Part shown: in pieces, positions 1-64,000 of the stretch
How positions within the stretch are numbered: position 1 is the first letter of the stretch
How the letters are laid out: every line of letters starts with the position of its first letter
Assembly: GCF_001315985.1 (NCBI RefSeq)
Contig: NZ_BBBI01000001.1
Span: forward strand, 124,001-188,000
DNA length: 64,000 nucleotides
Reading direction: 5' to 3'
From: Vulcanisaeta distributa JCM 11216
GTDB lineage: Archaea > Thermoproteota > Thermoprotei > Thermoproteales > Thermocladiaceae
Notes under the pieces: generated by a model
Seen by the model: the letters and a program-made list of their open reading frames with translations, nothing else
What the model was told of the DNA's origin: nothing
The model's database searches: none
Made by a program: the position numbers and the translations under genes

Positions 1-180
1 ATGGAGTTCTCGAGGGGGGGCCTAAACATGGTTGACACTGATAGGTTCGTTAAGATGTACGTGAATGAGTACACCATGGACATGGGGGGGATTGATGGCG
101 AGAGGGCAATTAGGGTGTTACTAGAAATGGGTCATGAAGATGGTTTACTGCCTGAACCCCCCCAATTGTTATTCGTCTAG
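1..180 (+). CDS. C-terminal end of an MqnA/MqnD-like protein (partial)
   Basis: An open frame enters from the left edge and stops at the TAG ending at base 180. The segment (MYVNEYTMDMG, then a helix ERAIRVLLEM) resembles the C-terminal helix of the MqnA/MqnD periplasmic-binding-like fold, known from futalosine menaquinone biosynthesis and from related uncharacterised proteins. Only about 60 residues are visible, so the assignment is tentative. Three seven-base G or C runs lie inside it and probably add extra Gly or Pro residues. The real start is outside the window; the ATG at base 1 need not be it. Confidence 0.45.
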   Translation: MEFSRGGLNMVDTDRFVKMYVNEYTMDMGGIDGERAIRVLLEMGHEDGLLPEPPQLLFV

Positions 181-181
181 C

Positions 182-1252
182 TCACTTAATCACCACACCC
201 AGTTCGGTTAGTCTACTTATTTCATCATGCGATAGGCCAAGTTCCATTAAAATCTCCGCGGTGTTTTCGCCCAGTCTCGGTGCCCTGCCCCCCCGCGACC
301 TAGGTCTAGCGTCATTTATTACTAATGGGTTGAGGAATTCATTCACATTAAAACCTCTCGCAACTAATTGAGGGTCTTTCTCAAGGTCCTTTATGGAATT
401 TACGGGGGGGCCGCTGGTACGTCATGGCTCCAAAGGAGTTTGAGAGCCTCGGCAACGGTGTACTTACCGAATTCCCTACTTAGCTCATTAATGACCTCCT
501 TATCGAACTGCCTATTGATTAGGTCTTCACGGTTTAAGGCCCTGCATAACCCTCGCCAGAACTTAGTCTCTATGGCACCAATGGTTATGTAACCATCCCT
601 GCATTTGTAAACGTTATAGAACGGGTACTTACCAGTTAGGCTTGGGTCTGCGCCCTCGTAGGTGATCGCCATGTTCAACGTATTGAAGAGCAACGCGGCC
701 TCCATCATGGAGACCTCAACCCTACCACCAACACCACGTAGTAGTAGGGTTAGGACACCAATCACGCATAGCAGGGCTGAACCGACATCAGCAACCTGCA
801 CAGTAAGTGGCCTTGGCACTCCATCACTGAATAGACCTGGGTCTAGTAGGCCCGCAACGCTGACCGTATTAATGTCGTGGTTTGGAAGCCTGAGTACGGT
901 CCACCCTCTCCATAACCATTTATTGAGCAGTAAACAATCCTGTCATTAATTTCCCTGAGTCTCCCATAATCAATGCCAAGCTTCTCAGCAACACCGGTCT
1001 AAAGCCCTCGACAATCACGTGACTACTCCTGACCAATTTATAGAATAATTCCCTGCCCTCCTCAGTCTTCAGATTAATTGCTACGCTCCTTTTGCCGGCA
1101 TTCAACCATTCAAAAAGCTTTGGCGAGATCTCCCTTAGGTAATCACCGGTCTCCGTATCCTCAACCTTAATAACGTCAAAGCCAAGGTCAGCCAGTATTC
1201 TCGTCGCAACACCACCAGGAAAAAGCCTAGTTAGGTCTAAAACCCTAAACAT
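182..1252 (-). CDS. CaiB/BaiF-type class III CoA-transferase (frameshifted)
   Basis: The N-terminus (VLDLTRLFPGG, then ADLGFDVIKVEDTETGDYLR) is typical of family III CoA-transferases, which move CoA between acyl groups. Reading continues through HVIVEGFRP, a central GGRVEVSMMEAALL segment and a C-terminal PRLGENTAEIL motif that ends at a TGA at 184-182. Three suspected indels split the frame: one missing G after EGFRP near 1000, one missing C near 885, and a C7 run at 404-410 where five would restore APVNS. The repaired length of about 355-360 residues fits the family. It lies 48 bases downstream of the thioesterase gene on the same strand, so the two probably form an acyl-CoA operon. The substrate cannot be told. 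Confidence 0.8.
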
Positions 1253-1300
1253 TGCGTATGCTGCATACTTTAATTAATAAGTGTTTAACACGTGGTTGAT

Positions 1301-1814
1301 TTAGGGATTGCCATTGTTCCTCTGTCCGTTGTTCTTAACCATGAACCATGTCCCTATCCCAACTGCACACAGTTTCTTGTTTGCATCGTATACATGACCC
1401 TCGCAACGGCCAAGTGCTTACCAGCCCTGATCACCCTGCCCTCCACAGTGAATGGCCCATTTATCAACGGCTCAAGGAAGTGAACCTTAAGCTCTGCAGT
1501 GTATTGATTAATGCCATCGTTAACGGTCATGACGGCAGTGCCAAGTACGGTATCGATCACGGTCATAACAACGCCACCGTGAACCATACCCCCCCCTGCC
1601 TAAGTATCTCACGCTTATATGGAAAAACAGCCTTAACATAGCCATCATTTACCTCCACAAACTCAAGGCCGATGAAGTTGAATAAGGGCTCATTACGCAG
1701 GTAATTGTTCATTAAATCAGCAATGTTAAGACCAGTGGATCTAGCCTTAAGAAACAACTCCCTAACACTACTTATTGATCCAGTCATTTTGATCAACTCA
1801 TCCCATGCTGACAC
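1301..1814 (-). CDS. PaaI-like hotdog-fold acyl-CoA thioesterase (frameshifted)
   Basis: The two halves together give a PaaI/4HBT hotdog domain of about 170 residues, with the characteristic MVHGGVVMTVIDTVLGTA turn-helix. The first break is a C8 run at 1589-1596, where a multiple of three is needed to join RQG to MVHGG. A second missing base near 1383 hides the C-terminal HVYDANKKLCAVGIGTW. With both repaired, the gene stops at TAA 1303-1301. Such enzymes hydrolyse acyl-CoA or clear stalled CoA esters in the cytoplasm. It is followed by the CoA-transferase gene on the same strand, so they are probably co-transcribed. Confidence 0.75.
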
Positions 1815-2496
1815 GTAATATAGGTGAGGGAAGGCCTATTTAAACAAAGTTATGCTGATAAGTAAATAGTGATAAGTAACCTATAAAGTTAAAGATGACC
1901 TACACAGGGCAAGCGAGTCCAACAGTACTACCTAGTGGTAGCCCCAATGGCTAAGGGCTACACAATTAGTTAGGGGGGGTAGTTCGAAAATAATAACCCA
2001 ATACCTAAGCCAAATAGAAACACTAATACCAATAACATACGTAACAATGATTGAACTCAATACCTGCCAATCAACAAATGACTTCATTAATGGTAGACTT
2101 AGGATAGTCAGTTCCTTAATCCAGTCCACTATATTAATTGGTATATCCAGTGACTAATACGTTGAATGAAATTTACACGATAATACGACTTAGCTTAACA
2201 ATGTGGCAGTGAATGATTTAATAGTGGCACAGTAACAGTATCATTCATAACAAATAAGGATAAGCGATTATAAATGATACCATGACCCACTAACTACCTA
2301 ACAGTACAACCCTGACGTCAATGGATTAACACGGACATGGCATTACCATCTACAATACTCAGTGCTATCGGTCAATTATAATATGTGCAGGAACATGAAA
2401 TATTGATACGTAAGTCATTGAACATAATGATGAAATATTGATCAATGCATCATGGTGAAATAAATCGTTAAGGTTAATTTCAAAATTATTATTCTT
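1815..2496. other. Long intergenic stretch with no clear gene
   Basis: This is the longest gene-poor stretch in the window (682 bases). A 65-codon minus-strand frame at 1932-2129 could encode a small protein with one or two hydrophobic segments, but I recognise no family. The AT-rich part at 2160-2460 contains a 13-base direct repeat (ATGAAATATTGAT at 2395 and 2430). No tRNA cloverleaf was found. Part of the stretch presumably holds the thioesterase promoter and the 3' end of rpl5. Confidence 0.5.
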
Positions 2497-3095
2497 TTAC
2501 TTTATTATTTTTACACCAAGAACCTCCTGGAAAAACTTCATCGCCTCGGCCCTACTAACCCTCTGATCCCTACCAACCTCGCTCCTAGCCCTCCTCCTAT
2601 ACATGACCCTTAACCCCCCCGGCCTCGTGAGTACCGTGACCACATTTAAGCCCCATACGCCAACTGCCGGGTCGTACTTAGTACCTGGTATCATTATGTG
2701 TTCCCTTATCCCGAGGCCACGTTACCCCCCCAATCATCGAATGAACCCTCCCTCAGTGTGAAGTCCACTGCAGCTAATGCCCTAAGCAGGAACCAAACGG
2801 CCTTATTCCTCCTTAGGGTAACCGCCACACCGATTGGTTCTCCCCTCCTAATATTCCAGTCCTTAATTGACCTCTTGGCAAGTCTATAGCTCGGTTCCTG
2901 CTGCGTTAATTCCTCGAGTACCTTGGCAGCCTTCTCAAGTCTTTCACCGCTCTGCCCAACACCTATGTTGGCTACGACCTTCTCAATCCTAATAACCCTC
3001 ATTGGATGATCAGCGGGCAATACAAACTTCCTCCAGTCCAGTTGGTCCGGTGTTAATGTCTTTAAGTCCACCTGCGTTAGGTCTATTGCAGGCAT
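2497..3095 (-). CDS. rpl5: Ribosomal protein uL5 (large subunit, frameshifted)
   Basis: The N-terminal half contains MRVIRIEKVVANIGVGQSGE and RRGEPIGVAVTLRR. The C-terminal half contains IPGTKYDPAVGVWGLNV and a basic YRRRARSEVGRDQRVS tail. Together they give archaeal L5, which binds 5S rRNA in the central protuberance. A missing C near 2735 breaks the frame after DDWGN; restoring it reads on through GIREHIMIPG. Two G/C7 runs (2614 and 2725) each add one Gly to conserved positions (RPGL and DDWGN). The gene stands alone, not inside the usual L14-L24-S4-L5-S14 operon, as can happen in Thermoproteales. Confidence 0.92.
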
Positions 3096-3229
3096 CGTTT
3101 ATGCGTGGGGAATAAGCATTAATAAAAATTTGCCTCATGGGCATTGCGTTGATATATAGGCATATTTATTTATAAATATGATAATTACTTTACTAACAAA
3201 AGCCCTATTAAGCTTCAGCCACACGAATC

Positions 3230-4629
3230 ATGATGTCGGGTAAAACGCCCTTTGAACCACTTGATTGGTCGAACCCAACACCAGGACACCTAAAGCTACT
3301 ATTCATATCAGGCGCAGGCTTCTTCGCCGATGCCTATGACCTATTCGCAATATCCATAGCCCTAGTATTCCTAAAGCAGGTCTGGTCGCTAACGGCTTCA
3401 GAAATAAGTCTAATATCATCAGCCGCGTTATTCGGCGCGGTAATTGGCCCCTTCATCTTTGGTAGGATTGGCGACATATTCGGCAGGAAGTACATATATG
3501 GCGTTGAGGCTGCCCTATTAACGCCGGCGCCATAGTCTCTGCCTTCTCGATAAACCCAACAATGCTCTGGATAACAAGGTTCATACTGGGTCTCGGGGGG
3601 GTTGGTGGTGACTACCCAATAAGCGCCACGCTAATGAGTGAGTACGCGCCAGCCAGGAGTAGGGGGGGTTTATTCGTGGCTGGTGTCTTCTCAATGCAGG
3701 GTTGGGGGGGCATAGTCACGGCGGCCCTACTCGGCCTGGGACTACTGAATGCTAAGGTTAATCCAGACCTCGCCTGGAGGGTAATACTTGGCTTTGGTGC
3801 TGTCATGCCCGCCCTCGTCATTTACTTTAGGCGTAAAGTCCATGAGACACCCAGGTTTGAGTACTTTGTTAAGGGTGATGTTGAGGGTGCCAGGAGGGCC
3901 ATTAAGGACGTGCTTAGGCAGGACGTGGAGATAAACAACGTGAATAACCGCGATAATGGTTTTCGCACCAACTTCCTGAGGTACCTACCAGTAATACTAG
4001 GCACGGCAATACCTTGGTTCGCACTTGACGTGTTCTTCTACGGCATGAACATATTCGGACCCTTCGTAACCTCCGCAATGGGCCTAGCCAAGAACCCACT
4101 GGCCGGCGTATACGTTCAGTTATACGTCGTACTGGCCTTCCTAGTCCCTGGCTATTACGTGGCTGCCTTCCTAGTGGATAAGATGGGTAGGAAGTCCATG
4201 CAGATAATGGGCTTCTCAATAGTGGCCGCCGCATACCTAATCACGGCGTTCATGCTAAGGAACGGCATAATAACCCCAGCGGCCATAATAGCCCTGTACG
4301 GCCTAGCCCAATTCTTCACTAATGTCGGTCCCAACGTGACCACATTCATACTACCAACTGAGGTATTCCCAACCCGGTTCAGGACTACGGGCCACGGTAT
4401 AGCCGCAGGCAGTGGTAAGCTCGGCGCAACAATAGCCGCGCTGTTAATCCCAATAATCTTCCCAATAACGAGCAGCACGTTGAGCACAACTGCTAAGTAC
4501 ATGGTCATGTCGAACCTACTGCTTGTCCTCGTTGCAATAGCAATAGTGGGTATAGTATTCACGGCACTCTTCATAAATGAACCTAAAGGCAAGCCGTTGG
4601 AACTATCCTCAGGAGAATTAGCAGCGTGA
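3230..4629 (+). CDS. MFS transporter, phosphate:H+ symporter-like (frameshifted)
   Basis: A 12-helix major facilitator protein of about 465 residues. The N-terminus (SGAGFFADAYDLFAI) and the loop GRIGDIFGRKYIYG are the hallmarks of the Pho84/PHS-like group. After repair the sequence reads GVEAALLTAGAIVSAFS, so one base is missing near 3524, where the frame currently stops. The conserved GLGVGGDYPISATLMSEYAP appears with an extra Gly caused by a G7 run at 3595, as do SRGLF (3662) and QGWGI (3704). The second half has PTEVFPTRFRTTGHGIAAG, another PHS-like signature. The substrate could be phosphate or an organic acid. It lies in the plasma membrane and has no obvious operon partner. Confidence 0.85.
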
Positions 4630-4660
4630 TTTATTAAAACTAACCCCAATTCAAAGCTAT

Positions 4661-5081
4661 GTGAGTATTTCTAAAGAGTTCATTAGAGACCTAATTAGAG
4701 ATATCGAGCATGCGGTAAGGGGGGGAGATTAATAGGATCACGAGTAAGCCATATGATGAATTAGACGATGAAGGTAAGATGGCAGTTAGGTATGAGTTAA
4801 TAGTCATTGCCGAGGCATTAATGGCCTTAGTAATACATATAGTACGTAGGGACTTAAACGAGAGGCCCAGGACACCTATAAATGCATTAATGATATTAAG
4901 GAACAGAGGTTTGCTAACGATCAATGAGTATGAAGACTTATCAAAATTGGTAAGGCTTAGGAACCTGCTTGTCCATAGGTACTGGATAATTGATGATTAC
5001 TTAATATATCAAAATGTTAAGACGAACTTTAAAAGCCTAATAAACTTCATAAATAGACTAAGGAGTCGCTATGGAATTTAA
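4661..5081 (+). CDS. hepT: HEPN-domain toxin, HepT-like (frameshifted)
   Basis: A short all-helical protein whose C-terminal half carries the exact RX4HXY motif (RNLLVHRY), which marks HepT-type HEPN RNases; in studied systems the tyrosine region is AMPylated by the partner. Upstream of base 4779 the frame is broken at the G7 run 4719-4725, where three or six Gs are needed. The start is then the GTG at 4661 (SISKEFIRDLIRDIEHAVR). The stop overlaps the next gene by 11 bases, so the two are co-translated. Together they form a type VII-like toxin-antitoxin pair. Function is inferred from the motif. Confidence 0.75.
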
Positions 5082-5478
5082 TGAGGAATACACCTATTAC
5101 TCAATGAGCAGTGAGGGGGGGAGGGAATCGTTAATTTCGAGGATTAAAGGTGTTCTTAAGGAGTACGGTGTTTCCCTAGGCATCATATTCGGTAGTTTCG
5201 TAGATCTAAATGAGTTTAGGGACGTGGACATTGCAGTTTACGGAAAGGACCTTGGCCTCAATAGGTTATTAAGCCTTGGGGGGGTTAGGCTCGAGGAGGT
5301 CCTCGGCATTCCAGTGGATGTGGTTCCATTAATGGATATTAACCCCGAGTTCAGGCTTTCAATACTGGAGCGAGGTTTAATCATTCTAGAGGATGCTGAT
5401 GGCTTATACGAGGCCTTAATAAGCGAGACCCTTGATGAACTTTACCTGGTTAAGCGTGAGGAAAACCTAGTACAATAA
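5071..5478 (+). CDS. mntA: Minimal nucleotidyltransferase antitoxin, MntA-like
   Basis: A 135-residue minimal nucleotidyltransferase. The active-site strand reads GIIFGSFVDLNEFRDVDIAV, i.e. GS followed by DVD, as in the Pol-beta-like MNT family. The spacing between GS and DVD is eight residues, slightly shorter than the ten usually quoted. A third acidic residue is expected in the following VPVDVVPL strand (VDVV). In HepT-MntA pairs this protein neutralises the HEPN toxin by adding AMP to it. Overlap with the upstream HEPN gene and the toxin-first order support that role. A G7 run at 5278-5284 may add one Gly. Confidence 0.75.
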   Translation: MEFNEEYTYYSMSSEGGRESLISRIKGVLKEYGVSLGIIFGSFVDLNEFRDVDIAVYGKDLGLNRLLSLGGVRLEEVLGIPVDVVPLMDINPEFRLSILERGLIILEDADGLYEALISETLDELYLVKREENLVQ

Positions 5479-5841
5479 GTATGGCGCCTCCTTGAGCGTG
5501 CTCGTTGTTGGATCTATCATTAGGCCCAGGATCTCCAGCGTCGTTATGCCTATGAGGACCTTATCAATGATGTCACTAATGACAACCCTAACCGTGGCCT
5601 CCCTACCCATTAACCTAACCTTAACCTCGCCAAACTCAACATTGACTGGCCCACCGGCGGTCATGACAACGCCCCCCCTATCCGTCACCCTCAGCCCAAG
5701 CTCCACGGCTAATGCCCTGGGTATGACAGTTAGGGTAGCGCCACTATCCACCAATGCCTTTACCCTAACCTCCCTATCCCCCCCACTTATTAATTCGACA
5801 TCAACCCAAACATGGCCCATATACTCCACAAATTCCACCAT
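5467..5841 (-). CDS. Retropepsin-like single-domain aspartic protease
   Basis: The protein contains KALVDSGATLTVIPRALA, the active-site DSGA loop of clan AA aspartic proteases (retropepsin/DDI1-like), followed by a flap-like AGGPVNVEFGEVKVRLMG strand pair and VLIGITTLEILGLMIDP, which corresponds to the conserved ILG-loop near the C-terminus. About 124 residues is right for a homodimeric single-domain protease. I chose the ATG at 5841 because it lies just past the stop of the upstream coiled-coil gene. The 3' end overlaps the MNT gene on the other strand by 12 bases. Target unknown. Similar genes are scattered in crenarchaeal accessory regions. Confidence 0.7.
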   Translation of the reverse strand: MVEFVEYMGHVWVDVELISGGDREVRVKALVDSGATLTVIPRALAVELGLRVTDRGGVVMTAGGPVNVEFGEVKVRLMGREATVRVVISDIIDKVLIGITTLEILGLMIDPTTSTLKEAPYLLY

Positions 5842-5870
5842 CACGGTACTTATAAAGTTTCTATAAAGAC

Positions 5871-6772
5871 CTACGTCGATGACACCAGGAATGGCGTTAA
5901 CTCCTCCCTCCACGTGAACACCCAAACACCGTTTTTCCTAGCCTCCTCAATGGCCTCAGGGACATACCTCATGCAATAAAGAACCTTAACAACCCTAGGC
6001 CTCAGGTACTGTGGATACCTACTCCTCAACTCATTTATTGCGCCCATCAACTCCTCAACCTTACTGACCCGAAGATCCAGGGTTGCATCACCAACCACGC
6101 ACAAGTCATCGGTAGCGCCGTAAATATTCAACTCAAGCACCTCCCTACCGCCCTCGGTAATTACCAACCTGCCTAACTTAACATTAACACCGAGCTTCTC
6201 CCTTAATTTCCAGGAGACTACGTCAACAGCCTCATCCTCAATGCCATAGGTTAGCTTCTGCATTGTTCTATTCATTTGATTCAGTGTCCTTTTAATGTCC
6301 TGAACATCCCTGGTGAGCTCATCAAGCTTGGCTGAGTGACTTTGAAGTATTTCTGAGTGGCTTTGGAGTATTTTACCGTGCTCATCAAGTTTACTACCGT
6401 GCTCCTGTAACAACCTTGTATGCTCATTCAAAATCCTACCATGTTCCTCTAATAACCTTCTTTGCTCCTCAAGGCTTTACCATGCTCCTGCAATAACCTT
6501 GTATGTTCCTGCAGTATCCTGCTGTGCACCTCAAGGATCCTGCTATGTTCTTGCAATAATCTCGTGTGTTCCTCAAGTATTTGCCCATGTCTCTTCAACT
6601 CCTCCTCAATACTCACAATCCTACTTAGCATGGCATTAAAGTCCTGCCTAAGAGCCTTAAGCTCACTAAGTATTGCATCGAGACCCAGGGCACCAGCTAC
6701 GGCAAGCCTAAATTCCTCATCAGTCCTAATCAACTCCAGGACAATCCTCCTAACCTCATCCCTACTAACCAC
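5871..6772 (-). CDS. Coiled-coil repeat protein of the archaeal DUF3782 type (frameshifted)
   Basis: Residues about 60-160 are a long coiled coil built from near-identical seven-residue units (LLQEHGK, ILQSHSE, LLQEHTR), a pattern typical of DUF3782-like proteins in Thermoprotei. A globular C-terminal domain follows, with VLELNIYGATDDLCVVGDATLD and a conserved-looking VVKVLYCMRYVPE. This resembles the PD-(D/E)XK-like part of those proteins, but I cannot confirm the catalytic residues. One base is missing near 6475; restoring it joins HGKAL to EEQRRLLEEHGRIL. Total about 300 residues. The protein is probably a helical oligomer. Its DNA role is a guess. It lies 29 bases upstream of the protease gene, so both may be one transcript. 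Confidence 0.6.
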
Positions 6773-6953
6773 ACTAATCTACACCACAAAACATCACCTA
6801 GAATTAATAACCCTTCCCATCATGCTCTGCGGGACTAAAATCGTGGCCTCGTTAATTACTCAAGAGAAATGTTAGATGCTACTGGCGAAATCTTAAGGGT
6901 ATCATAAATAGCGATATTACCATAGCTACTCTCATGATATGCGAAAATACTCA

Positions 6954-7385
6954 TTAAACTAGGTAATCATACACGAATATCTCAATCACGACCAGTAATA
7001 GGTAGTAAGCCGAGGCAAGTAATAAGTTACGTGAAACATTAACCTTAATCCCAGGTAACAATATGAAACCGAGTAATTCAGCAATGCTCAGAATAAACGT
7101 AAATCCACCCAACACCAAGCTTATACCGAGTATTGCACTTACTGCAAAGTAACCAACTAGGGCGCCATTTAGGACTAGGATTAACCTATACAGGTGATTC
7201 AGGCCTAACCTAATCAGTGCAAATATGATTATGTAAATGAAGTAGTTATGCAAGAATATAAATGCAATATCCTGTAAAGTCAGCGGATGTACAGAAACGC
7301 TAAGGCGATGAACGAGGGCAAGCAACGAGCCCACGATATACGATGAGGTAATTAATGATGAATCAAGGGATATAGCCCTATCCAT
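6954..7385 (-). CDS. SpoIIM/DUF95-like membrane protein of the peptide cassette
   Basis: About 143 residues and four or five hydrophobic segments. Two segments match the SpoIIM/DUF95 pattern: a membrane helix with an internal Asn-Gly (LILVLNGALVGYFA) and one ending in an acidic residue (FTFILSIAELLGFIL). DUF95 proteins accompany many circular bacteriocin genes and serve in export or self-immunity. The start ATG at 7385 was chosen because it lies inside the end of the upstream protease gene, giving a 34-base overlap and coupled translation. Third gene of the three-gene cassette. Family call by pattern only. Confidence 0.5.
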   Translation of the reverse strand: MDRAISLDSSLITSSYIVGSLLALVHRLSVSVHPLTLQDIAFIFLHNYFIYIIIFALIRLGLNHLYRLILVLNGALVGYFAVSAILGISLVLGGFTFILSIAELLGFILLPGIKVNVSRNLLLASAYYLLLVVIEIFVYDYLV

Positions 7386-8575
7386 AATGCAATCACCAAC
7401 GAAGGTAATAGGGCCAACAATACCCAAATTAACAAGGACTTAGCCATGGGTCTCCCTAAAATGAGCGACGCACCAATAATTGCCAGTGCGTTATTCACGG
7501 CATAAATCACCAGGTTCTGCACAGGCCATGCGAAATCCAGTGAGGTAAATGTTAAGTAAAATAATAATGACTTCCTAGCCAATGATGGGGGGGAGTAACC
7601 CAATGTCGTCAATAGTTTGAGCACTAGAAAACCATACACAATAAAGAATGCGAGGATAGACACGAAGTACGTTAGTACAAATATCACCATTACAATAATA
7701 TTACCTGTAAGGGACGTATAAAAGAATGCGTATAGAGTTAGGTACTTAAGAATCAATAAGGTGGTTATCAATGACAACGGGTATATCAATGCCCGCACCT
7801 GGGCAGCAAGGCCTAGTTTTGATTCATTTATTTTATACCTTAACTCAATCGGATCATGGGTATCGAAGAACCTACTTAACAATGACTTGGGATTACGGAT
7901 CTTATAAAGTGCCGATTTGAGGGCTTCCCTACCCACGGCCTTTACAGCATGTAAATCAGCCTCCCTCTCCGCAATATTATACTGCTTCTTAATTACGACC
8001 AAGAAGAGATATACGTAAATAATGATTAATATGGGTATCGAGATCTCCTCAATTCTTAAGTATTTAATTAGGTATATTGTGATGGGTAAAAAAGTAATGA
8101 GCATATATGGTATAAATACTATGTATGCTGATAGATAATCCCTGTTTAGAATATGGGCATACTCATGTTTTACAACAGCCATTAATTCCTCCTTATTTAA
8201 TAACTCGAGGTACTGTCTCGTAATTATTATTACAGGAAGGCCCGTGGGCACGATGGCATTATATATTACAACGGGTTTATTTAATCGCTTAACACTCGTT
8301 TCACCACTGACCACATAGATCTGCTCATTATTTACGTAACTTACTTCGACCTGCTTATTCCTCACTAACAAATTCAGCCATGTTTCAAATATAACTCTCG
8401 ATAAATAGAACATATAAAATAAGTAAAAGGACTCAACGATTGGAATAACTATAGTACCAATCATGGGTTTAATAATTATGACCAAATATGTTAAAAAGAG
8501 TATTAATAAAATAAAGCCTATTTGATATAAATCTAAGGTCACTCGTATCTTTGAAAAATCGTATATACTATGCAT
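7352..8575 (-). CDS. Integral-membrane M48-type zinc metalloprotease
   Basis: A 407-residue membrane protein with about eight hydrophobic segments. The helix VVKHEYAHILNRDYLSAY holds the HEXXH zinc motif, and about 75 residues later AEREADLHAVKAVG supplies the third ligand (EADLHA), as in HtpX and other M48 proteases. The C-terminal 150 residues form several further membrane helices, longer than in plain HtpX. It starts 15 bases after the stop of the small hydrophobic-protein gene and overlaps the SpoIIM-like gene, so the three genes are one operon. A likely job is to cut the leader from the small protein. This is inferred from context, not shown. One G7 run at 7587 adds a Pro. Confidence 0.75.
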   Translation of the reverse strand: MHSIYDFSKIRVTLDLYQIGFILLILFLTYLVIIIKPMIGTIVIPIVESFYLFYMFYLSRVIFETWLNLLVRNKQVEVSYVNNEQIYVVSGETSVKRLNKPVVIYNAIVPTGLPVIIITRQYLELLNKEELMAVVKHEYAHILNRDYLSAYIVFIPYMLITFLPITIYLIKYLRIEEISIPILIIIYVYLFLVVIKKQYNIAEREADLHAVKAVGREALKSALYKIRNPKSLLSRFFDTHDPIELRYKINESKLGLAAQVRALIYPLSLITTLLILKYLTLYAFFYTSLTGNIIVMVIFVLTYFVSILAFFIVYGFLVLKLLTTLGYSPPSLARKSLLFYLTFTSLDFAWPVQNLVIYAVNNALAIIGASLILGRPMAKSLLIWVLLALLPSLVIALWIGLYPLIHH

Positions 8576-8590
8576 TTAAACATCACCGCA

Positions 8591-8899: not shown

Positions 8900-8917
8900 T
8901 AATACCAATAATACCAA

Positions 8918-21101: not shown

Positions 21102-22301
21102 GTGAACCTGGACCTAGCGCCGGACCCTCTTCTCGTGGTCCCTGGACCATCACAAATACCACCTAGGGTGATGAGAGCCTTAATGAGGGTTGTTGACCAT
21201 AGGTCTCCTCACTTCCATAGGCTATATAGGGACGTGGTTGAGGGCTTAAGGTACGTCTTTCGAACAAACGGTGATGTATTCCCAATAACCGCGAGTGGTA
21301 CCGGCGCCGTTGAGACCATGGTCCTCAACTTCGTCAGGCCCAGGGATACCGTTCTCGTGCCAGTCTTCGGAAGCTTCAGTAGGAGGCTTGTTAATCACCT
21401 TAGGAGGGTTGGTGCTGAGGTTATTGAGGTTGATTATGGTTGGGATAGGGCGCCCACGTATGATGACTTAAGGGCTCGTGTTGAGTCAATGGGTATCAAG
21501 CAAGTTGATGTATTCGCCACGGTCTATAACGACACAAGCCCAGGCATTGTGTTTAGGGACCTGCCAAAGGTTGCTGGGTGGATTAAGTCCTACGGCGCCT
21601 TGGTGCTTGTTGATAATGTGTCCGCCCTAGGCGGTGATTACTTTGAGGTGGATTCCTGGGGGGGGATTGACGTTGCTGTATCTAGCAGCCAAAAATGCCT
21701 TGCTGCCCCCCCGCCGGTCATGTCGTTCATTGCTGTAGCCTCGAGCGAGGCCTATCGTAAGGCCGATTCCGTGAATCACGCGAGTATTTACTTCGACATT
21801 AAGTTAATGAGGAAGTTTGGAGAGAAGTCTGAGACACCGTTCACGCCCTCCGTTAATTACCTATTCGCCATTAGGGAGGCCCTGGGCATAATTAGGGAGG
21901 TTGGCCTTGAGAACTGGATTAGGTGGCACGTAGAGAGGGGTAAGGCGATTGTGAACGCCCTTAATAAGATGGGCCTGGAACCCTTTATAAAGAATGACTA
22001 CCACAGATCAACAACGGTACTCTCATTTAAGTACCCACAGGGTATCAGCCCTGATGAGTTCAGGAAAACGGTATATAGGCTCGGTGTGTCGATTTCGGAT
22101 GCCATGGATGATGTGAAGGGTAAGGCCTTCAGGATTGGTAACATGGGTTACCTAACAAGGAGGGATGTGCTTACCCTGGTTTCGTCTATAATGGCCGCAT
22201 TATCGATCATGAATAACACCGGCAGTATTAATAACATAGATGTTTTTAAGGAGATTTTGAATTACTGGGAACCACAGCAATTCTCAATGGATGAGGGCTA
22301 A
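21102..22301 (+). CDS. Class V aminotransferase, serine/alanine-glyoxylate type
   Basis: A 399-residue fold-type I enzyme. The opening LVVPGPSQIPPRVMRAL and DHRSPHFHRLY are diagnostic for the alanine/serine-glyoxylate aminotransferase family. ITASGTGAVETMVLN binds the PLP phosphate, LVLVDNVSALGGDYFEVDSW holds the Asp-Ser pair, and SSSQKCLAAP holds the PLP lysine. Two runs inflate conserved segments: G8 at 21658 (DSWGID) and C7 at 21706 (AAPPV). The start GTG at 21102 agrees with a TATA box. The 3' end overlaps the sdhD stop by 18 bases. It could act in glycine/serine or isopropylmalate-type metabolism. Confidence 0.85.
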   Translation: MNLDLAPDPLLVVPGPSQIPPRVMRALMRVVDHRSPHFHRLYRDVVEGLRYVFRTNGDVFPITASGTGAVETMVLNFVRPRDTVLVPVFGSFSRRLVNHLRRVGAEVIEVDYGWDRAPTYDDLRARVESMGIKQVDVFATVYNDTSPGIVFRDLPKVAGWIKSYGALVLVDNVSALGGDYFEVDSWGGIDVAVSSSQKCLAAPPPVMSFIAVASSEAYRKADSVNHASIYFDIKLMRKFGEKSETPFTPSVNYLFAIREALGIIREVGLENWIRWHVERGKAIVNALNKMGLEPFIKNDYHRSTTVLSFKYPQGISPDEFRKTVYRLGVSISDAMDDVKGKAFRIGNMGYLTRRDVLTLVSSIMAALSIMNNTGSINNIDVFKEILNYWEPQQFSMDEG

Positions 22302-29568: not shown

Positions 29569-30101
29569 TTAAGCTTTTATTTCATTCTTAGGATTTGACC
29601 TAACTATATACAGTATGTTAATTGTAACGAACAATACACCGATGATGAATAATACGACGCCTAGATCCATCATTATACTTAGTATCACCGCATTACTTAT
29701 CATGTATTGAGATATTGAGGTCACCAAAAGTGAAACATTAAGTGGCGTTGAGTTTTCATTAAGTAGCACTAATGAGTAATTACCGTGTTTGAGTAGTGGA
29801 AACATTACTAGATAAATACCCCCCCCTCCTGTTTATAGTTCAGTGGGGGGGTTAGTACATGTCCAAATGGGTCAAATACGTAAATGGATAATGGGTATGA
29901 ATTATTAAGCATGACTACTATGTACGCGGGGCTTTTTATGTAGATTGGCATTAGGTACTTCGAATTAACGTCCATTCTTACCGTGGTATTGTTTACTGTA
30001 TTAATCATCACGTTATATACCTTGGGCAAGAATGAATTGGATATTAATAGTATTGCTATTCCAATTATCATTAGCGAAATGCCCACTCTTACTAAATTCA
30101 C
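29569..30101 (-). CDS. Two-helix membrane protein with extracellular domain, unknown function (frameshifted)
   Basis: The halves join into a protein of about 175 residues: a helix (VGISLMIIGIAILLISNSF), a beta-rich extracellular domain with several N-glycosylation-type NNS/NNT sites, and a C-terminal helix (LGVVLFIIGVLFVTINILYI). The frame breaks at the C8 run 29819-29826, where three or six are required to continue into IYLVMFPLLKHGNYS. The layout matches the gene at 14952. No family recognised. It lies just upstream of the nop5 start in opposite-operon position on the same strand. Confidence 0.55.
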
Positions 30102-30552: not shown

Positions 30553-31401
30553 TCATGGTATTATGTGGTATATTTTCATTAGCATATATATACCTACGAG
30601 CACTATTATTGCCCCCCCATAAGCAATCCTCAGAGTCCTCTTTGGGACCTTAACAGCCAGGTTAGTGCCTGCGTAACCACCAGCCACACCGCCGGCCACG
30701 TATAGTAGGGCTATGAGTACTAGGACGTCGCCGTAATACCAATACTCGGCACCGCTGGCCACACCGAATGTTCCAACACTTATTAGGCTCGTCCCAATGG
30801 CCCTCGTTATGCACAGGCCCGCAGAGAACATTAGGCTGGGCACAATTAGGAAGCCACCACCAATACCAAAGTAACCACTGACCAAGCCCACTAGGAAGCC
30901 GAAGACTGCCACCTTGAGTATAGTCGACATTGTCAGTCTCGGGCACCTCTGGAAGGCGTTAAGCACGTGATTAACCTCATCGGCAGTACCGGCCTGCGTT
31001 GACTCCCTCCTAATTGCCATGTATATACCAAGCACAATCATTGCTATTGCGAAGTAGGTCAGTAAGTCAGTGCCTGGTGTTATGTGGCCCAGGTAAGCCC
31101 CTATTAAGGAACCAACGAGGCCTACGCCGGCGAATATGCCTCCGATCCTCGGTGCCACGTTCTTCTTCCTAAGGTGCATGTAGGAGTTTATGTACGCGTT
31201 TAAGCCAACGGCCAGTGCGGTAGTCCCAATGGCTATATGGGCTGCGTCAGGTATTGTGTCAAGGCCAACGAAGTATAGGAACAATGGGACAGCCAAGATA
31301 CTACCACCACCCCCCCCAATAAGACCGAGTGAGAAACCAACCAGTATCCCCCCCGATACTATTGACAACACGTACTGCACCAGTGTTATTACCACAGTCA
31401 T
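30553..31401 (-). CDS. TauE/SafE-family sulfite or organosulfonate exporter
   Basis: An eight-helix permease of 282 residues with the twofold TauE repeats: GFSLGLIGGGGSILAVPLF in the first half (an extra Gly from the C8 run at 31310) and GLVSGYFGIGGGFLIVPSLM in the second. Both GGG loops with a following Pro are the family signature. The substrates of this family are sulfite, sulfoacetate and similar anions. It stands alone and its promoter region is only the AT-rich gap to PPDK. Confidence 0.9.
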   Translation of the reverse strand: MTVVITLVQYVLSIVSGGILVGFSLGLIGGGGGSILAVPLFLYFVGLDTIPDAAHIAIGTTALAVGLNAYINSYMHLRKKNVAPRIGGIFAGVGLVGSLIGAYLGHITPGTDLLTYFAIAMIVLGIYMAIRRESTQAGTADEVNHVLNAFQRCPRLTMSTILKVAVFGFLVGLVSGYFGIGGGFLIVPSLMFSAGLCITRAIGTSLISVGTFGVASGAEYWYYGDVLVLIALLYVAGGVAGGYAGTNLAVKVPKRTLRIAYGGAIIVLVGIYMLMKIYHIIP

Positions 31402-42473: not shown

Positions 42474-43778
42474 ATGACTGATTTAGTAATCAAGGTTTTA
42501 GGTGGTGGAGGTGAGGTCGGTAGAATGGCTATTTTCGTTAAGGATGCCAATTCAGACAAGGGTTTCCTCTTCGATTATGGCGTTAACTTTGATGAAAATG
42601 ATAGGCCCGTAATGCCTAGTCATGTCAGGCCCAGGGACATAATGGCGGTATTCCTAAGCCACGCCCACTTAGATCATTGTGGTGCACTGCCGAGCCTATA
42701 CGTCAGCTCGCCACCACCTGTATACGCCACGCCATTAACGCTTGAGCTTGCAGACATCATGTTTAAGGACGCCATTAAACTGAGCGGTTATTACCTGCCC
42801 TACGAGGATGAGGAGATCAAGGCCGTGCTTGACCACGCAATACCCGTGACCTATGGCGAGGATGTTGACATATCAAAGGATGTTAGGGTTACGATAATAA
42901 ACGCCGGCCATGTGCCGGGCAGCATGTTAACCTTACTGGAGATAAATGGTGCCAGGGTACTATTCACGGGTGACTTTAACCTGTCACCATCAAACCTATT
43001 GCGTGGTGCCGATATTAATAATGTGCCTAGGGACGTTGACGTGGTCATTATGGAGGGTACGTACGTAGCAAATACACACCCGCCCAGGGAGGAGGTTGAG
43101 AAGGAGTTCATTAGGGTGATTAAGGAGACTATCGAGGATGGCGGTTCAGTATTAATTCCCGTACTTACAATCGGTAGGGCTCAGGAAATACTAATAACGC
43201 TTTATAAGAATGGTATTGACTACCCAATAATAATTGATGGCTTGGCTAGGGTAGCCAATCAAATAGTGGCTAAGTACCCCCCCCATTACCTGGCGAATCC
43301 CGAGCTTTACCTAAAGGCTGTGGAGAATAGTCTTGAGATCACCACGGACTACCAGAGGAAGTCATTAACCAAGGAGCCCGTGATAATAGTCTCGCCAGCC
43401 GGTATGCTAAAGGGAGGCGCCGCTGTTTATTACCTAAAGAAGTTGGGTAGGGATAGGAGAAACGCTGTGATACTTCCAAGCTACCAGGCGCCGGATACAC
43501 CGGGCTTTGAGTTATTAACGAGAGGTAGGGCGTTCATTGATAAGGCTGAGATCGTGCTTGAAGCAAGGCTTTATTGGTTTGACTTTAGTTCACATAGTGG
43601 TAGGGCTGAGTTGGAAGCGTTCATTAATCACTTCAGCCCAGATACTAAGGTTCTCCTCGTTCATACGGATGCAATAAAGGCTCTTCAATTCCTTGAGAGG
43701 TTGAAGGTTAAGTACGGCATTGATAACGTACATATGCCAATTAATGATGAAGCATTATTAATGCGTGTGGGTAGGTAA
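42474..43778 (+). CDS. Metallo-beta-lactamase/beta-CASP RNA-processing nuclease (aCPSF2-like)
   Basis: A 434-residue beta-CASP nuclease. The zinc motif FLSHAHLDHCG, the second His in VTIINAGHVPGSM, and LFTGDFNLSP are conserved metallo-beta-lactamase signatures. The beta-CASP domain ends with VIIVSPAGMLKGG and WFDFSSHSGRAELEAF. There is no N-terminal KH domain, so it fits the short aCPSF2 group rather than aCPSF1. It probably processes or degrades RNA. A C8 run at 43276 adds a Pro to KYPHYL. Upstream and downstream genes are unrelated, so it is monocistronic. Confidence 0.85.
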   Translation: MTDLVIKVLGGGGEVGRMAIFVKDANSDKGFLFDYGVNFDENDRPVMPSHVRPRDIMAVFLSHAHLDHCGALPSLYVSSPPPVYATPLTLELADIMFKDAIKLSGYYLPYEDEEIKAVLDHAIPVTYGEDVDISKDVRVTIINAGHVPGSMLTLLEINGARVLFTGDFNLSPSNLLRGADINNVPRDVDVVIMEGTYVANTHPPREEVEKEFIRVIKETIEDGGSVLIPVLTIGRAQEILITLYKNGIDYPIIIDGLARVANQIVAKYPPHYLANPELYLKAVENSLEITTDYQRKSLTKEPVIIVSPAGMLKGGAAVYYLKKLGRDRRNAVILPSYQAPDTPGFELLTRGRAFIDKAEIVLEARLYWFDFSSHSGRAELEAFINHFSPDTKVLLVHTDAIKALQFLERLKVKYGIDNVHMPINDEALLMRVGR

Positions 43779-55724: not shown

Positions 55725-55763
55725 GGAATTAGGTTTAATTAATTATGCCCTAGTGTTTTATCG

Positions 55764-57693: not shown

Positions 57694-57715
57694 TAATTAT
57701 TTTTAATGGGCATGG

Positions 57716-58357: not shown

Positions 58358-58382
58358 TGAGATTAGAATTAAGGATGGTTAG

Positions 58383-58841
58383 GTGTTCACTAGGATGAAC
58401 CCGGTGGAGCATGTCGAGCTTAGTACGCATGTACACGCAACGGAGAGCGAACTCAAGGTTGTGAAGGCACTACTTAACTTAATACCACCTGAGTACAGGG
58501 ATGGAGTGAGTATAATAAGAAGTGGAGGGCAGGGGGGGCATTTCGGTAATGACATAAATACGGTAAAGATACAATTAAAAGGTGAGGAGGCACTACGTAC
58601 TACGCAATACATATTTAGGGGGGGGATTGATCAATTGGATAGTGAGATAATACTAGTCACATTGAGCAGTAGGTTCGGTGATGGTAAATTATACCTCAGG
58701 TTTAATAAGCAGTTGGCCTATAGTGGCGTGGCTAGGCTTGACGATGGTGATGACGTGATTAAGGTGATAATAAGGTTTAATCACTGGGTGATTAAAAATG
58801 AGGGTATTGAAAACGTAATTAGGCAATTAATTACCCGTTAA
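58383..58841 (+). CDS. COG1325-like predicted RNA-binding/exosome-associated protein
   Basis: The sequence [40 protein letters not shown] and [20 protein letters not shown] resemble COG1325 proteins, which have been linked to the archaeal exosome. The final part holds [20 protein letters not shown]. Length 152. The gene follows folE by 25 bases and may share its transcript. Its stop overlaps the ilvD stop on the other strand. G7/G8 runs at 58532 and 58618 add Gly. Function by family guess only. Confidence 0.6.
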
Positions 58842-60543
58842 AGCCTTGGTAGGGTCACGGCGCCCATTGACGCTGATGTAACCAACGACGCGTACTTAGC
58901 CAGTAATCCCCCCCTTGTGTACCTAGGCGACGGTGATTGCCAATTCTTCAACCTCCTCTTAATCTCCTCCTCAGGCACCAGCAAATCTAGGCGGCCATTC
59001 TCTACATCAATGAGTATTCTATCACCATCCTCAACAACGGCTATCGGCCTCCAACGGCCGCCTCGGGAGCCACGTGGCCAACCATGAAGCCGCGGGTAGC
59101 ACCGCTGAACCTGCCGTCAGTGACCAACGCTACGTCCTTACCCAACCCAGCCCCCCCTACCAGAGCTGCCGTGACCCTAAGCATCTCCGGCATTCCAGGA
59201 CCACCCTTAGGACCCTCATACCTAATGACAACCACATCACCCGGCCTAACCTCACCCCCCCTCCTAATTGCCTGGAACGCCTCCTCCTCACTATTGAACG
59301 GCCTTGCCCTACCCTCAAACCTCATTAACTCCGTAGCCGCGACCTTAATCACGGCACCCTCAGGCGCCAATGAGCCCTTGAGTATTCTAATGCCGCCCCC
59401 CCAGGGCTTTATTGGGTTGCTCACGTCCCTAACTATGTGGTCATGCGGTACATTTGGGAACTTGTAATTCTTTAGATTCTCCTCCATTGTCTTGCCCGTT
59501 ATTGTAAGTACCTTACCATTGAGTAGACCCGCCTTTAGTAGCTTCAACATAACTAGTGGGACGCCGCCGACGGCGTCGAGGTCGGCCATTACGTAATCAC
59601 CGCCAGGTCTTAAGCTCGCTATGTATGGGGTTCTCTTGGATATCCTGTCGAAGTCCTCGAGTGTTAACTTAACCCCCCCAGCCTCATGTGCTATGGCCAG
59701 TAGGTGTAGTATGGCGTTGGTTGATCCGCCCATCGCCATTAATACCGTTATGGCATTCTCAAAGGCCTCGTATGTCATGACGTCCCTAGGCTTAATACCA
59801 AGTTCCATGGCATTCATTAGCGCAACGCCGCTCTCAACCGCATACATTACTCTTCTAGCTGATGTGGCCGGTGGTGAGGCACTCCCTGGTAAGGCCATGC
59901 CCAACGCCTCCGCTATGGCTGCCATGGTGTTTGCTGTGAACATACCTGCGCAGGTTCCATAGGTTGGGTGGGCCCTCTTTTCTATTTCATAAAGCTCATC
60001 CTCCGTGATCTTACCCGCGAGGTAGGCGCCTATTGCCTCGTGAACATCCTCAATTGTGAGTTTAAGATTACCGTAAAAACCAGGCTCCGCCGTCCCACCG
60101 TATAGGTAAACAGCGGGTATGTTTAACCTAGCCATGGCCATTAGGATTCCCGGTGTTGTCTTATCACAACCGCCGATACCAACGAAACCATCAAACGCAT
60201 GCGCATTAATCTGGGCCTCTATCGTATCAGCAATGACCTCCCTACTCACCAGGCTATACCTCATACCCTCAGTACCCATCCCAATGTTGTCATTAACGAC
60301 TATCGTCGGCACAGTAAGCGGCGAGCCACCACCCCCCCTACGCACACCCTCCTTAACGTGGACGGCCAATTGAAGTGTATGTATATTACACGGCCCAGCC
60401 TCACTCCACGCAGCAACAACAGCAACCAATGGCTTACCAATGTCCTCATCCGAAAAGCCTATAGACCTCAGGAAAGCCCTGTGCGGTGCGTTTAAGACAC
60501 CTCCATACCTCTCCTGACTTCGCAGGTTGACCTTAACCATCAA
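58838..60543 (-). CDS. ilvD: Dihydroxy-acid dehydratase (frameshifted C-terminus)
   Basis: The iron-sulfur ligands are in [15 protein letters not shown] and [17 protein letters not shown], and the hallmark [20 protein letters not shown] closes the protein core. The printed frame stops at 59041 where one G is missing in [14 protein letters not shown]; the repaired gene continues to TAA 58840-58838 (about 568 residues, the normal size). It makes 2-oxo acids in valine, leucine and isoleucine synthesis. C7 runs at 59150, 59254, 59395, 59671 and 60332 each add a Gly, e.g. [11 protein letters not shown]. Confidence 0.95.
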
Positions 60544-60650
60544 TAATCTATATACCCACCCCCCCTATTAAATTAATTCACTACTTAACACATTAGAATG
60601 AGAATCAACATAATACTTAATAATTCGGTCATAGATCAATAGTAATTTGT

Positions 60651-61127: not shown

Positions 61128-61153
61128 TAAGCACTTTTTAACTTCGTTCAAAA

Positions 61154-62032
61154 TTACGCTTCGCTTAAATACCTCCAGGAAAGCACGATTCCTATTATCG
61201 AGAATATTGCCGCGAAGGCTATTAGGTATGTGAAATCAAGCAATAAGTTATACCCAGTCACGCCAAGTAATAATTGCCTATTGATGTCGTTTACATAAGT
61301 CAATGGGTTCACATAGGCAATGGGCTTTAACCACCAGGGCATTGACTTAACCGGGTAGAAGGAGTTGCTCGCGAACATCAGCGGCATGTTCAGTAGGTTC
61401 ATTATCGCCATCTGAGACTCCCAGGAGGTTGACCTTAGGGCTAGCGTCACGAATAGCGATGCGAAGCCCATGGACATTAGGGCAAGCGCCGCGTAGGCAC
61501 CTAGTATGTCCAGCGGGTTTAGGCTTGGGTTTAGGCTCATGCCGAGTAGCATCGCTATTATTAGCACTATTGTTGCTTGAACCAGGGATCTAATCATGGA
61601 GTTCAGGACCTTAGCCATCACGATATTGCCCCCCCTAGGCACTGGCGTAGTCAGTAACTTGCTTAGGACCCCCCCAAGTCTCCTATCCCACACAATACTC
61701 ATGCCGCTCTGTAATGATGTGAATAGCGTTATGAAGGAGAGCATGCCCACCGCCAGGAATGAGAAGTAGTCCGTGGTCCCGAAGTTCGCCTTTAGGACCT
61801 CAGACGCAATCTCATCAATTACCTGCTTGGGTATGTTTAACCCAGGTATATTAAGTCCACTTGTAAACATTGTTGCAAAGTTCATGGACTTACCGAAGAA
61901 CGCCAGCCAGACGATTGGTTGTATCAGCGATATTATCAATATGACGGGTGCCTTATACCACTTAGCCAACTCCCTATTTGTTAACGCCCAAAGCCCATGC
62001 AGTGGGTGTAGTTTCACGGCCATGCCCATCAC
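61154..62032 (-). CDS. ABC-2-type exporter permease (DrrB-like)
   Basis: A 292-residue ABC-2 permease with six hydrophobic helices. It begins HPLHGLWALTNRELAKWYKA and PVILIISLIQPIVWLAFFGK, then FLAVGMLSFITLFTSLQSGM and VWDRRLGGVLSKLLTTPVPR (coupling loop), and the last helices AYVNPLTYVNDINRQLL. The DrrB-like order of R and G residues is typical. It overlaps the ATPase gene by 4 bases. Substrate could be lipids or small drugs. C7 runs at 61628 and 61669 each add a Gly. Confidence 0.88.
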   Translation of the reverse strand: MMGMAVKLHPLHGLWALTNRELAKWYKAPVILIISLIQPIVWLAFFGKSMNFATMFTSGLNIPGLNIPKQVIDEIASEVLKANFGTTDYFSFLAVGMLSFITLFTSLQSGMSIVWDRRLGGVLSKLLTTPVPRGGNIVMAKVLNSMIRSLVQATIVLIIAMLLGMSLNPSLNPLDILGAYAALALMSMGFASLFVTLALRSTSWESQMAIMNLLNMPLMFASNSFYPVKSMPWWLKPIAYVNPLTYVNDINRQLLLGVTGYNLLLDFTYLIAFAAIFSIIGIVLSWRYLSEA

Positions 62033-63030
62033 CTCCTGGCCCTAGCCACAGTCCTCCTAAACCTCATAAACTCCTCCGAACTACCCTCCTCATCCCTAAG
62101 TCTCCTACCCGTGAACTCCAGGAATACCTCATCCATCGTGGGCTCCTTAATGGTTATGCTCGTAGCCCTAATACTAAGCTTATTAAGGGCCTCAAGTATT
62201 ATTGGGGGGGCCGCCGTATTACCATTCCTAACCTTAAAGGTTATCGTGTTACCATTAACAGTAACCCCACTAACGCCATCAATACCCTCAATAACCTTCC
62301 TGGCGGTATTAACATCCCCATTAACCTCAATTGTTATCACGTCGCCACCAACCTTCTCCTTAAGCTCCTTCGGTGTGCCGATGGCGAGTATCTTACCATG
62401 ATCAATGATCGCAACCCTCTCCGCATACTGATCAGCCTCCTCCAGGTAATGCGTGGTCATGAATATAGTCGTGCCATACTGCCTCCTAAGCCTATACACG
62501 TAATCCCAAATCGCAGCCCTAGTCTGGGCATCGAGGCCCAGCGTAGGCTCGTCAAGGAACAATATGGCAGGCCTATTAATGAGGCCCATGGCAATCTCCA
62601 ACCTCCTCCTCATGCCTCCTGAGTACGTCTCAACCTTCCTATCAGCCGCATAAGAAAGCTCCACCATATCAAGCAACTCAGCAGCCCTCTCCCTAGCCTC
62701 CCTCTTAGGAATACCATACAGCGCAGCAATAAGCATTAAATTCTCCCAACCAGTCAAATCCTCATCAGCAGTATACTCCTGAGGTACCACACCTATACTT
62801 TCCCTAACCTTAGCTGGCTGCTTAATCACGTCATAGCCATTAATTATTGCAGTTCCCTCGGTTGGTCTAGTTACTGTGGTTAGCATCTTTATCGTTGTCG
62901 TTTTACCTGCACCATTTGGCCCAAGGAATCCAAAGACCTCTCCATAATATACCTCGAAGTTTATATGGTCAACCGCGGTGAAGTTTCCATAGCGTTTCGT
63001 TAAGTTTATCGCCTTAATAGCTACTTCCAT
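62029..63030 (-). CDS. ABC transporter ATPase, DrrA-type
   Basis: A 333-residue ATPase with Walker A (FLGPNGAGKTTTIKMLTTVT), signature YSGGMRRRLEIAMGLINRPA, Walker B ILFLDEPTLGLDAQTRA and a C-terminal DUF4162-like domain that is usual for DrrA drug or lipid exporters. It forms the DrrAB-type pair with the overlapping permease. The start ATG at 63030 has a typical AT-rich region upstream. A G7 run at 62200 adds a Pro in AAPIILEAL. Confidence 0.92.
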   Translation of the reverse strand: MEVAIKAINLTKRYGNFTAVDHINFEVYYGEVFGFLGPNGAGKTTTIKMLTTVTRPTEGTAIINGYDVIKQPAKVRESIGVVPQEYTADEDLTGWENLMLIAALYGIPKREARERAAELLDMVELSYAADRKVETYSGGMRRRLEIAMGLINRPAILFLDEPTLGLDAQTRAAIWDYVYRLRRQYGTTIFMTTHYLEEADQYAERVAIIDHGKILAIGTPKELKEKVGGDVITIEVNGDVNTARKVIEGIDGVSGVTVNGNTITFKVRNGNTAAPPIILEALNKLSIRATSITIKEPTMDEVFLEFTGRRLRDEEGSSEEFMRFRRTVARARR

Positions 63031-63097
63031 AATGGTCGCGTAAGTCGTTCTATACCTTACATATAAATCTTTCTCTAAATCGATATCGAATATTCGA

Positions 63098-63799
63098 TTA
63101 CAAATTAGCTCTCTTAATTACCTGTGAAATATTTGGTACGAATTTGTCTAGGGTTATGTGGGGTATGAATTGCCTGATGTACTCAAAGGCGTTGACTATG
63201 GGCCAGTTGGTGTTGTTTCCTTCGCTTCCTCTTAACTCGATGTATCCTGCTCTCCACAGGGTGGTTAGTGCGTCGGCGTAGAGTTTCCTGACCTTTATTG
63301 CTTCCTCGGCTGCGGCAACTTCCCTGGGCATTACCTTAATGGCTATCCTGACGTTACTTATCATAGCCTCTAGTTCATCCTGCGTATAATTATTCTTAAT
63401 GACTGGGCATAGTGTGGATACGACGAACTCCACGTTGAAGTCAACGAGTCTTAGCTCCGGGTCTATTATGTACCTAATCACCCTAGGCAGGTATGGGAAG
63501 GACCTGCAGGTGAGTGGTTTATAGAGCGAGTGAACCTTACAGGTTTTATCCTCTGGGTTTAGGAATGGGCACATGCCCCCCCTACTATTTAACTGCATTA
63601 GGTATGACAGCGCCACCCTAACGCCGTTCTTGATGTCCGTCACCACATAGCCAGGCTTAAAGTTTAGGTCCTTCACGTCCAGTTCCTCAGCTAATTTACT
63701 CAGTATTATTACTTCATGTGGGAATACCGTCACTGGTGATATTGTGCAGCAGTAGCCGCAGCTTGGCATGCATCTGAATGGCACTGACACACCTTTCAC
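63098..63799 (-). CDS. YkgJ-family Fe-S/zinc cysteine-cluster protein
   Basis: The N-terminus has CMPSCGYCCTISPVTVFP (cysteine cluster typical of YkgJ), then MCPFLNPEDKTCKVHSLYKP (two Cys) and LTCRSFPYLPRVIRYI (one Cys). The rest is helical. 233 residues. Such proteins bind a metal or Fe-S cluster with unknown purpose; in archaea they are common near flagellar and radical-SAM genes, but here neighbours do not help. A C7 run at 63576 adds a Gly. Starts at ATG 63799; the C7 run at 63799-63805 lies directly upstream. Confidence 0.8.
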   Translation of the reverse strand: MKGVSVPFRCMPSCGYCCTISPVTVFPHEVIILSKLAEELDVKDLNFKPGYVVTDIKNGVRVALSYLMQLNSRGGMCPFLNPEDKTCKVHSLYKPLTCRSFPYLPRVIRYIIDPELRLVDFNVEFVVSTLCPVIKNNYTQDELEAMISNVRIAIKVMPREVAAAEEAIKVRKLYADALTTLWRAGYIELRGSEGNNTNWPIVNAFEYIRQFIPHITLDKFVPNISQVIKRANL

Positions 63800-63841
63800 C
63801 CCCCCTGACTTTACTAGTTAAATTATTTTCTTCACTACACA

Positions 63842-64000
63842 TCATGAACAGCCAGAAACTAGATGAGGCACTAGTAGCGTTTCCTTCAACTTCCTAATCG
63901 CGTAGGCCTTACACCTAATGAGTTCGGCAGGGCTTCCACTACTAATCAGTGTACCGGCCCTGTCTATGTAAACACCAATTATGTCATCAAGCATGGCGCC
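63842..64000 (-). CDS. C-terminal part of an unidentified protein (cut by window edge)
   Basis: An open frame runs from the right edge to a TGA at 63844-63842. It reads MLDDIIGVYIDRAGTLISSG followed by SPAELIRCKAYAIRKLKETL and a short tail. The strand and helix pattern could be the end of a globular protein. Too short to name. It lies about 40 bases upstream of the YkgJ gene on the same strand. Confidence 0.3.
   Translation of the reverse strand, partial: GAMLDDIIGVYIDRAGTLISSGSPAELIRCKAYAIRKLKETLLVPHLVSGCS

What the first reader, a model, noticed from the sequence alone, without database searches (positions are those of the whole stretch)
1..64000. About 120 G/C tracts of exactly seven bases, likely an insertion of three
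Reading the window by hand I find about 120 runs of exactly seven G or C, against only about six of eight, eight of six and six of five. They occur in coding frames on both strands and in gaps (1973, 19392, 19447, 50522, 51911, 60559). Where families are well known, the tract carries one extra Gly or Pro: Trm1 DPFGSP (26146), M20 GRGATDMKGG (18046), PEBP RGHGPHRYFF (60970) and MGTYSR (61107), MFS GLGVGGDYPIS (3595), L5 RPGLRV (2614), SdhB CPKDVDP (23209). These need four bases, so four became seven. Four eight-base tracts (21658, 31310, 43276, 58618) fit five plus three. Ordinary GGGG tracts still exist (16137, 16215, 21936). A/T runs look normal. A +3 systematic base-calling or consensus error is the simplest reading, but a real expansion cannot be excluded from sequence alone.
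Basis: partly seen in the sequence, partly recalled or inferred. Interest (0 to 1): 0.8.

Follow-up and report, generated by a model that had tools for sequence, protein, structure and literature searches.

The report
False seven-base G/C runs, assembly artefact
In this draft genome of a hot-spring archaeon many four-base runs of G or C have been written as seven bases, almost certainly by a sequencing or assembly error, so that predicted proteins carry false extra glycines or prolines and the ribosomal RNA gene carries false insertions.

Summary
In detail: the window has 124 G/C runs of exactly seven (first-order expectation about 10), too few of four and five, and normal A/T runs. The whole genome has 4,803. 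By inference the genus is Vulcanisaeta.

Of 405 genomes of the phylum counted, own included, three show this: G000, G008 (same genus) and G020 (another genus); all are incomplete drafts. The ten other congeners have 0 to 5.

Against a relative 94% identical (G002), fours became seven in 219 of 388 cases and stayed four in 120; threes became seven in 2 of 2,584. Which sites changed is not shared between G000 and G008 (78 sites, Fisher p 0.34).

Decisive: the same four-to-seven change sits in rRNA genes of all three genomes, where no reading frame can select for +3 and such insertions are not credible. The assembly is also frameshift-ridden (28 of 55 aligned genes).

Likeliest mechanism (inferred, tool unidentified): a miscalibrated G/C run-length inference step. 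Not a biological feature.

The parts
1..64000. 124 G/C runs of exactly seven bases spread over the window (every one listed)
   Evidence: 73 of 120 comparable sites are four in G002
59041..60543 (-). one ORF (by recall a dihydroxy-acid dehydratase, IlvD) with five seven-base runs at 59151, 59255, 59396, 59673 and 60332
   Evidence: orthologues located
1589..1596 (.). eight-base C run
   Evidence: near a frame break
21658..21665 (.). eight-base G run
29819..29826 (.). eight-base C run
   Evidence: near a frame break
31310..31317 (.). eight-base C run
43277..43284 (.). eight-base C run
58618..58625 (.). eight-base G run

Best explanation
The seven-base runs are an artefact of base-calling or consensus building in a draft metagenome-type assembly, probably from long reads alone. 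The organism's DNA has four G or C at most of these places. Shown: lengths of G/C runs of four and more are remapped upward (4 mostly to 7, 5 to 7 or 8, 6 to 8, nothing above 8), runs up to three and A/T runs are left almost untouched, the set of sites differs between genomes, and neither flanking bases nor position explains it. Inferred: the length was chosen by a run-length inference step (a consensus polisher or caller with a model per base) that was miscalibrated for these reads, so that pile-ups of observed fours were decoded as seven; sites near the decision boundary fall either way. Which tool did it is not known.
For: Close relatives have four: 219 of 388 fours of G002 and 47 of 85 of G007 read seven in G000. 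It occurs in 3 of 405 genomes, in two genera, beside congeners with 0-5. No site sharing between G000 and G008 (28 both, 23 and 18 one only, 9 neither; p 0.34). Four to seven in rRNA: 13 of 29 (G000), 19 of 37 (G020), 26 of 48 (G008), against 0 of 116 in G002. Frame changes in 28 of 55 aligned genes in the window against 0 of 63 in the complete genome G003. A per-base maximum-likelihood run-length decoder is described in PMC7483855, whose authors call their repeat-count model sensitive to calibration errors (passages; section 60).
Against: No raw reads and no assembly methods could be seen, so platform and tool are guesses. Frameshift-ridden drafts G002 and G004 lack the sevens, so noisy consensus alone is not enough. 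A jump of exactly three that mostly skips five and six is unusual; I found no report of this very pattern in ten paper searches (listings, and passages plus one section of one paper). C runs convert somewhat more often than G runs (105 of 170 against 114 of 218), unexplained.
Confidence: 0.97

Rival explanations
1. Artefact, but made by the base-caller: single reads already contain about seven G/C where the molecule has four, and consensus merely repeats it.
For: All that speaks for an artefact; the consensus-model step is inferred only.
Against: The skip of five and six and the ceiling at eight look more like a decoded length than like scatter in reads; not tested on reads.
Confidence: 0.3
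2. Real expansion: replication or repair in these lineages adds three bases to G4/C4 tracts, tolerated in genes because the frame is kept.
For: 81 of 93 sevens in aligned proteins add exactly one residue; two of the three genomes are congeners.
Against: Same change in rRNA genes of three genomes; as frequent outside aligned proteins (8 of 16) as inside (65 of 104); sites not shared; threes untouched; congener 94% identical has none; the same assemblies have broken genes throughout.
Confidence: 0.01
3. Phase-variable (contingency) G/C tracts that switch genes on and off.
For: Long G/C runs inside genes.
Against: 4,803 runs of one fixed length genome-wide, rRNA included, mostly frame-keeping; relatives have four.
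Confidence: 0.003
4. The held copies of these three sequences were altered after deposit (file handling or deliberate marking).
For: A fixed change at random sites would look like this.
Against: Intermediate lengths (5, 6) and length-dependent outcomes (5 to 7 or 8, 6 to 8) do not look like a simple edit; the other genomes held are normal.
Confidence: 0.01

Closest known systems
Homopolymer-length errors of long-read (nanopore) consensus sequences
   Same: Errors confined to run lengths, in a draft with many one-base frameshifts.
   Different: Only G/C, a fixed jump from four to seven, frame kept in most cases; that such errors usually shorten long runs by a base is recalled, not tested.
Run-length-encoded consensus decoding as in MarginPolish (PMC7483855)
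   Same: Per base, a most likely true length is chosen from observed lengths; said to be sensitive to calibration errors; streaks at particular lengths are reported (passages; section 60).
   Different: No evidence that this tool was used here; the streaks reported are at high run lengths, not at seven.
Phase-variable poly-G/poly-C tracts (contingency loci; recalled)
   Same: Long G/C runs in genes.
   Different: Here genome-wide at one length, in rRNA too, absent in close relatives.

Membership tests
Consensus or base-calling homopolymer artefact | Close relatives lack the change at the same sites | tested here: met
   G002: 219 of 388 fours read seven in G000; G007: 47 of 85
Consensus or base-calling homopolymer artefact | Occurs irrespective of function, also in rRNA | tested here: met
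   three genomes, control G002 0 of 116
Consensus or base-calling homopolymer artefact | Other uncorrected indel errors in the same assembly | tested here: met
   28 of 55 aligned genes with a frame change in the window
Consensus or base-calling homopolymer artefact | Sites not inherited together between related genomes | tested here: met
   78 sites, Fisher p 0.34
Consensus or base-calling homopolymer artefact | Independent reads show the shorter run | not testable with these tools
   no reads held
Miscalibrated run-length decoder | Nonlinear length transfer limited to certain bases | tested here: met
   4 to 7, 5 to 7/8, 6 to 8, ceiling 8; A/T normal
Miscalibrated run-length decoder | Use of such a tool in the assembly | not testable with these tools
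Phase-variable G/C tracts | Limited to switchable genes | tested here: not met
   4,803 in the genome and in rRNA
Real tract expansion | +3 explained by selection for the reading frame | tested here: not met
   same +3 in rRNA and at sites outside aligned proteins (8 of 16)

The most novel reading that the evidence does not exclude
A real and recent process in a few hot-spring archaea adds three bases to G4/C4 tracts across the genome, rRNA genes included, and ribosomes and proteins tolerate it.
Probability: 0.01. Interest if true: 0.95.

Novelty: not a real feature. Interest (0 to 1): 0.15.

Why it matters
The error mostly keeps the reading frame, so checks that look for frameshifts miss it. 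Three species-level genomes held here have 3,857 to 7,958 such runs each, most of them presumably false; they put spurious Gly or Pro into proteins and lengthen rRNA genes, and would disturb trees, identity values and searches for G-rich motifs. Counting exact G/C run lengths (a peak at seven above a dip at five and six) is a quick test for affected records.

Tried and rejected
Flanking motif for expanded runs: none clear (fraction seven among runs of 4 and 7 is 0.56-0.74 by preceding base and 0.62-0.72 by following base). Clustering along the window: not significant (P 0.097). Frame selection as the cause of +3: rejected. Runs of 5, 6 and 8 lie at frame breaks in 7 of 26 cases against a background of 0.026, but explain only 7 of 37 breaks; sevens lie at breaks in 7 of 124, somewhat above background, fours in 0 of 63. 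Source study: paper searches gave nothing and 31 gave five papers, none with the term long-read; general searches showed no report of this pattern in their listings, which is all I saw of those papers. A scan of genome contigs with one window protein (594 relatives, 80 kept) listed no record titled Vulcanisaeta and was not used further. tRNA search of the window found none, so tRNAs could not serve as a test.

Full report
Observation. One search counted every homopolymer in the window: 124 G/C runs of exactly seven (78 C, 46 G), 63 of four, 12 of five, 8 of six, 6 of eight, none longer, and a smooth A/T series. A first-order model from the window's dinucleotides gives 9.6 sevens and 371 fours (the sevens themselves inflate this model).

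Where it occurs. The window is G000:C1:124001-188000 in a draft of 2,422,819 bases and 65 contigs, 67.75% complete; the genome has 4,803 exact sevens. All 81 genomes that the search returned for the class and 398 drawn from the phylum, together 405 different handles with G000, show two more like it: G008 (same genus, 3,857, 67% complete) and G020 (another genus of the family, 7,958, 47% complete; counted, not drawn). The next highest count is 340 (G197). The ten other congeners have 0 to 5, although some of them are incomplete too (G002 63%, G006 54%). The genus is Vulcanisaeta by inference: complete congener G007 is 2,374,137 bases long, the length given for V. distributa IC-017 in the abstract of PMC3035369 (search listing). 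No tree was built; kinship is by the tool's genus labels.

Run-length tables (40 to 180 kb per genome) show a peak at seven and nothing above eight in G000, G008 and G020. In G002, G003, G004 and G007 counts fall smoothly and end at five or six. G014 and G017, of the same genus as G020, have more runs of four to six and a few sevens, also falling smoothly.

What each run was. Alignment of G000:C1 with G002 (168,136 columns, 94.4% identity), keeping runs whose two flanking bases on each side match, gives the transfer of lengths. Three (n = 2,584): 3 in 2,555, 7 in 2. Four (n = 388): 7 in 219, 4 in 120, 5 in 22, 6 in 16, 8 in 5, 3 in 5, 2 in 1. Five (n = 35): 8 in 13, 5 in 12, 7 in 7, 6 in 3. 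Six (n = 4): 8 in 2, 7 in 1, 6 in 1. Against G007 fours (n = 85) give 7 in 47, 4 in 29, others 9. G008 against G007 (n = 72) gives 7 in 40, 4 in 27, others 5. G002 against G007 keeps 79 of 81 fours. A/T runs show only scattered changes of one or two bases.

Not inherited. At 78 sites where G002 has four and flanks agree in all three, both G000 and G008 are at six or more in 28, G000 only in 23, G008 only in 18, neither in 9 (odds ratio 0.61, Fisher p 0.34). Expanded runs do not cluster significantly along the window (P 0.097) and no flanking base decides.

rRNA. In the stretch of G000 with the 16S leader and the 16S gene (cut by the contig end), fours (n = 29) became 7 in 13, 8 in 2, 5 in 4, unchanged in 10; fives (n = 8) became 8 in 4, 7 in 2, 6 in 1, unchanged in 1. 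In G020, 16S with flanks against G014, fours (n = 37): 7 in 19, 4 in 15, 3 in 2, 6 in 1. In G008, part of 23S against G007, fours (n = 48): 7 in 26, 4 in 12, 5 in 8, 8 in 1, 3 in 1. Control G002, 16S to 23S: four stays in 113 of 116, the rest lose one base. The rRNA models find G000's 16S only in pieces (partly because the contig ends) and no 16S in G008; no 23S was found in G000 or G020. The G020 16S match is 1,580 bases long against 1,506 in G014. rRNA has no reading frame, so frame selection cannot have made the +3 there, and many three-base insertions into 16S and 23S, at differing sites in differing genomes, are not credible as working sequence (inference from established knowledge). This is the strongest argument.

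Proteins. Of 93 sevens inside stretches aligned to G007 proteins, 81 add exactly one residue. Conversion of four to seven is about as common at window sites outside these alignments (8 of 16, which may include unaligned genes) as inside (65 of 104).

General quality. With 71 ORFs of G007 as probes, frame changes are found in 28 of 55 aligned genes in the window, 34 of 68 in G002, 21 of 68 in G008, 28 of 63 in G004 and 0 of 63 in the single-contig genome G003. Such drafts look like uncorrected long-read consensus (inference). G002 and G004 have no seven-peak, so G000, G008 and G020 need a further, processing-specific cause.

Mechanism. Shown: a remapping of lengths limited to G/C, starting at four, with a ceiling at eight, at sites that differ between genomes. 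Inferred: a run-length inference step with a model wrong for these reads. PMC7483855 (passages, section 60) describes such a step: per base, the length of greatest likelihood given the observed lengths is chosen; its authors say that the repeat-count model appears sensitive to calibration errors and report streaks at high run lengths from numerical and encoding artefacts. I do not claim that this tool was used. An error already present in the reads is the main rival within the artefact reading.

Verdict. The runs are in the file but almost certainly not in the organism. Artefact 0.97, real expansion about 0.01.

Noticed in passing
window 1-64000: Half of the alignable genes carry frame changes (28 of 55 G007 ORFs, 39 changes), apart from the seven-base runs; gene calls in this record are unreliable.
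   Followed up: partly
G002 (L105-L108) and G004 (L117-L120): Two other draft congeners are as frameshifted (34 of 68 and 28 of 63 genes) but have no seven-peak.
   Followed up: partly
L163 (G002 rRNA) and L161 (G008 rRNA): G002 rRNA shows single-base losses in C or G runs against G007 (three to two in 6 of 228, four to three in 3 of 116); two of the losses and one T insertion in 23S also occur in G008. Either species differences or shared systematic errors.
   Followed up: no
L136 (G000:C1:42-183): Five seven-G runs within the first 183 bases of the contig, denser than elsewhere.
   Followed up: no
G017 (L131-L133) and G014 (L134-L135): These genomes of genus g4 have more G/C runs of four to six than genus g1, falling smoothly; it looks like a natural difference.
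   Followed up: no
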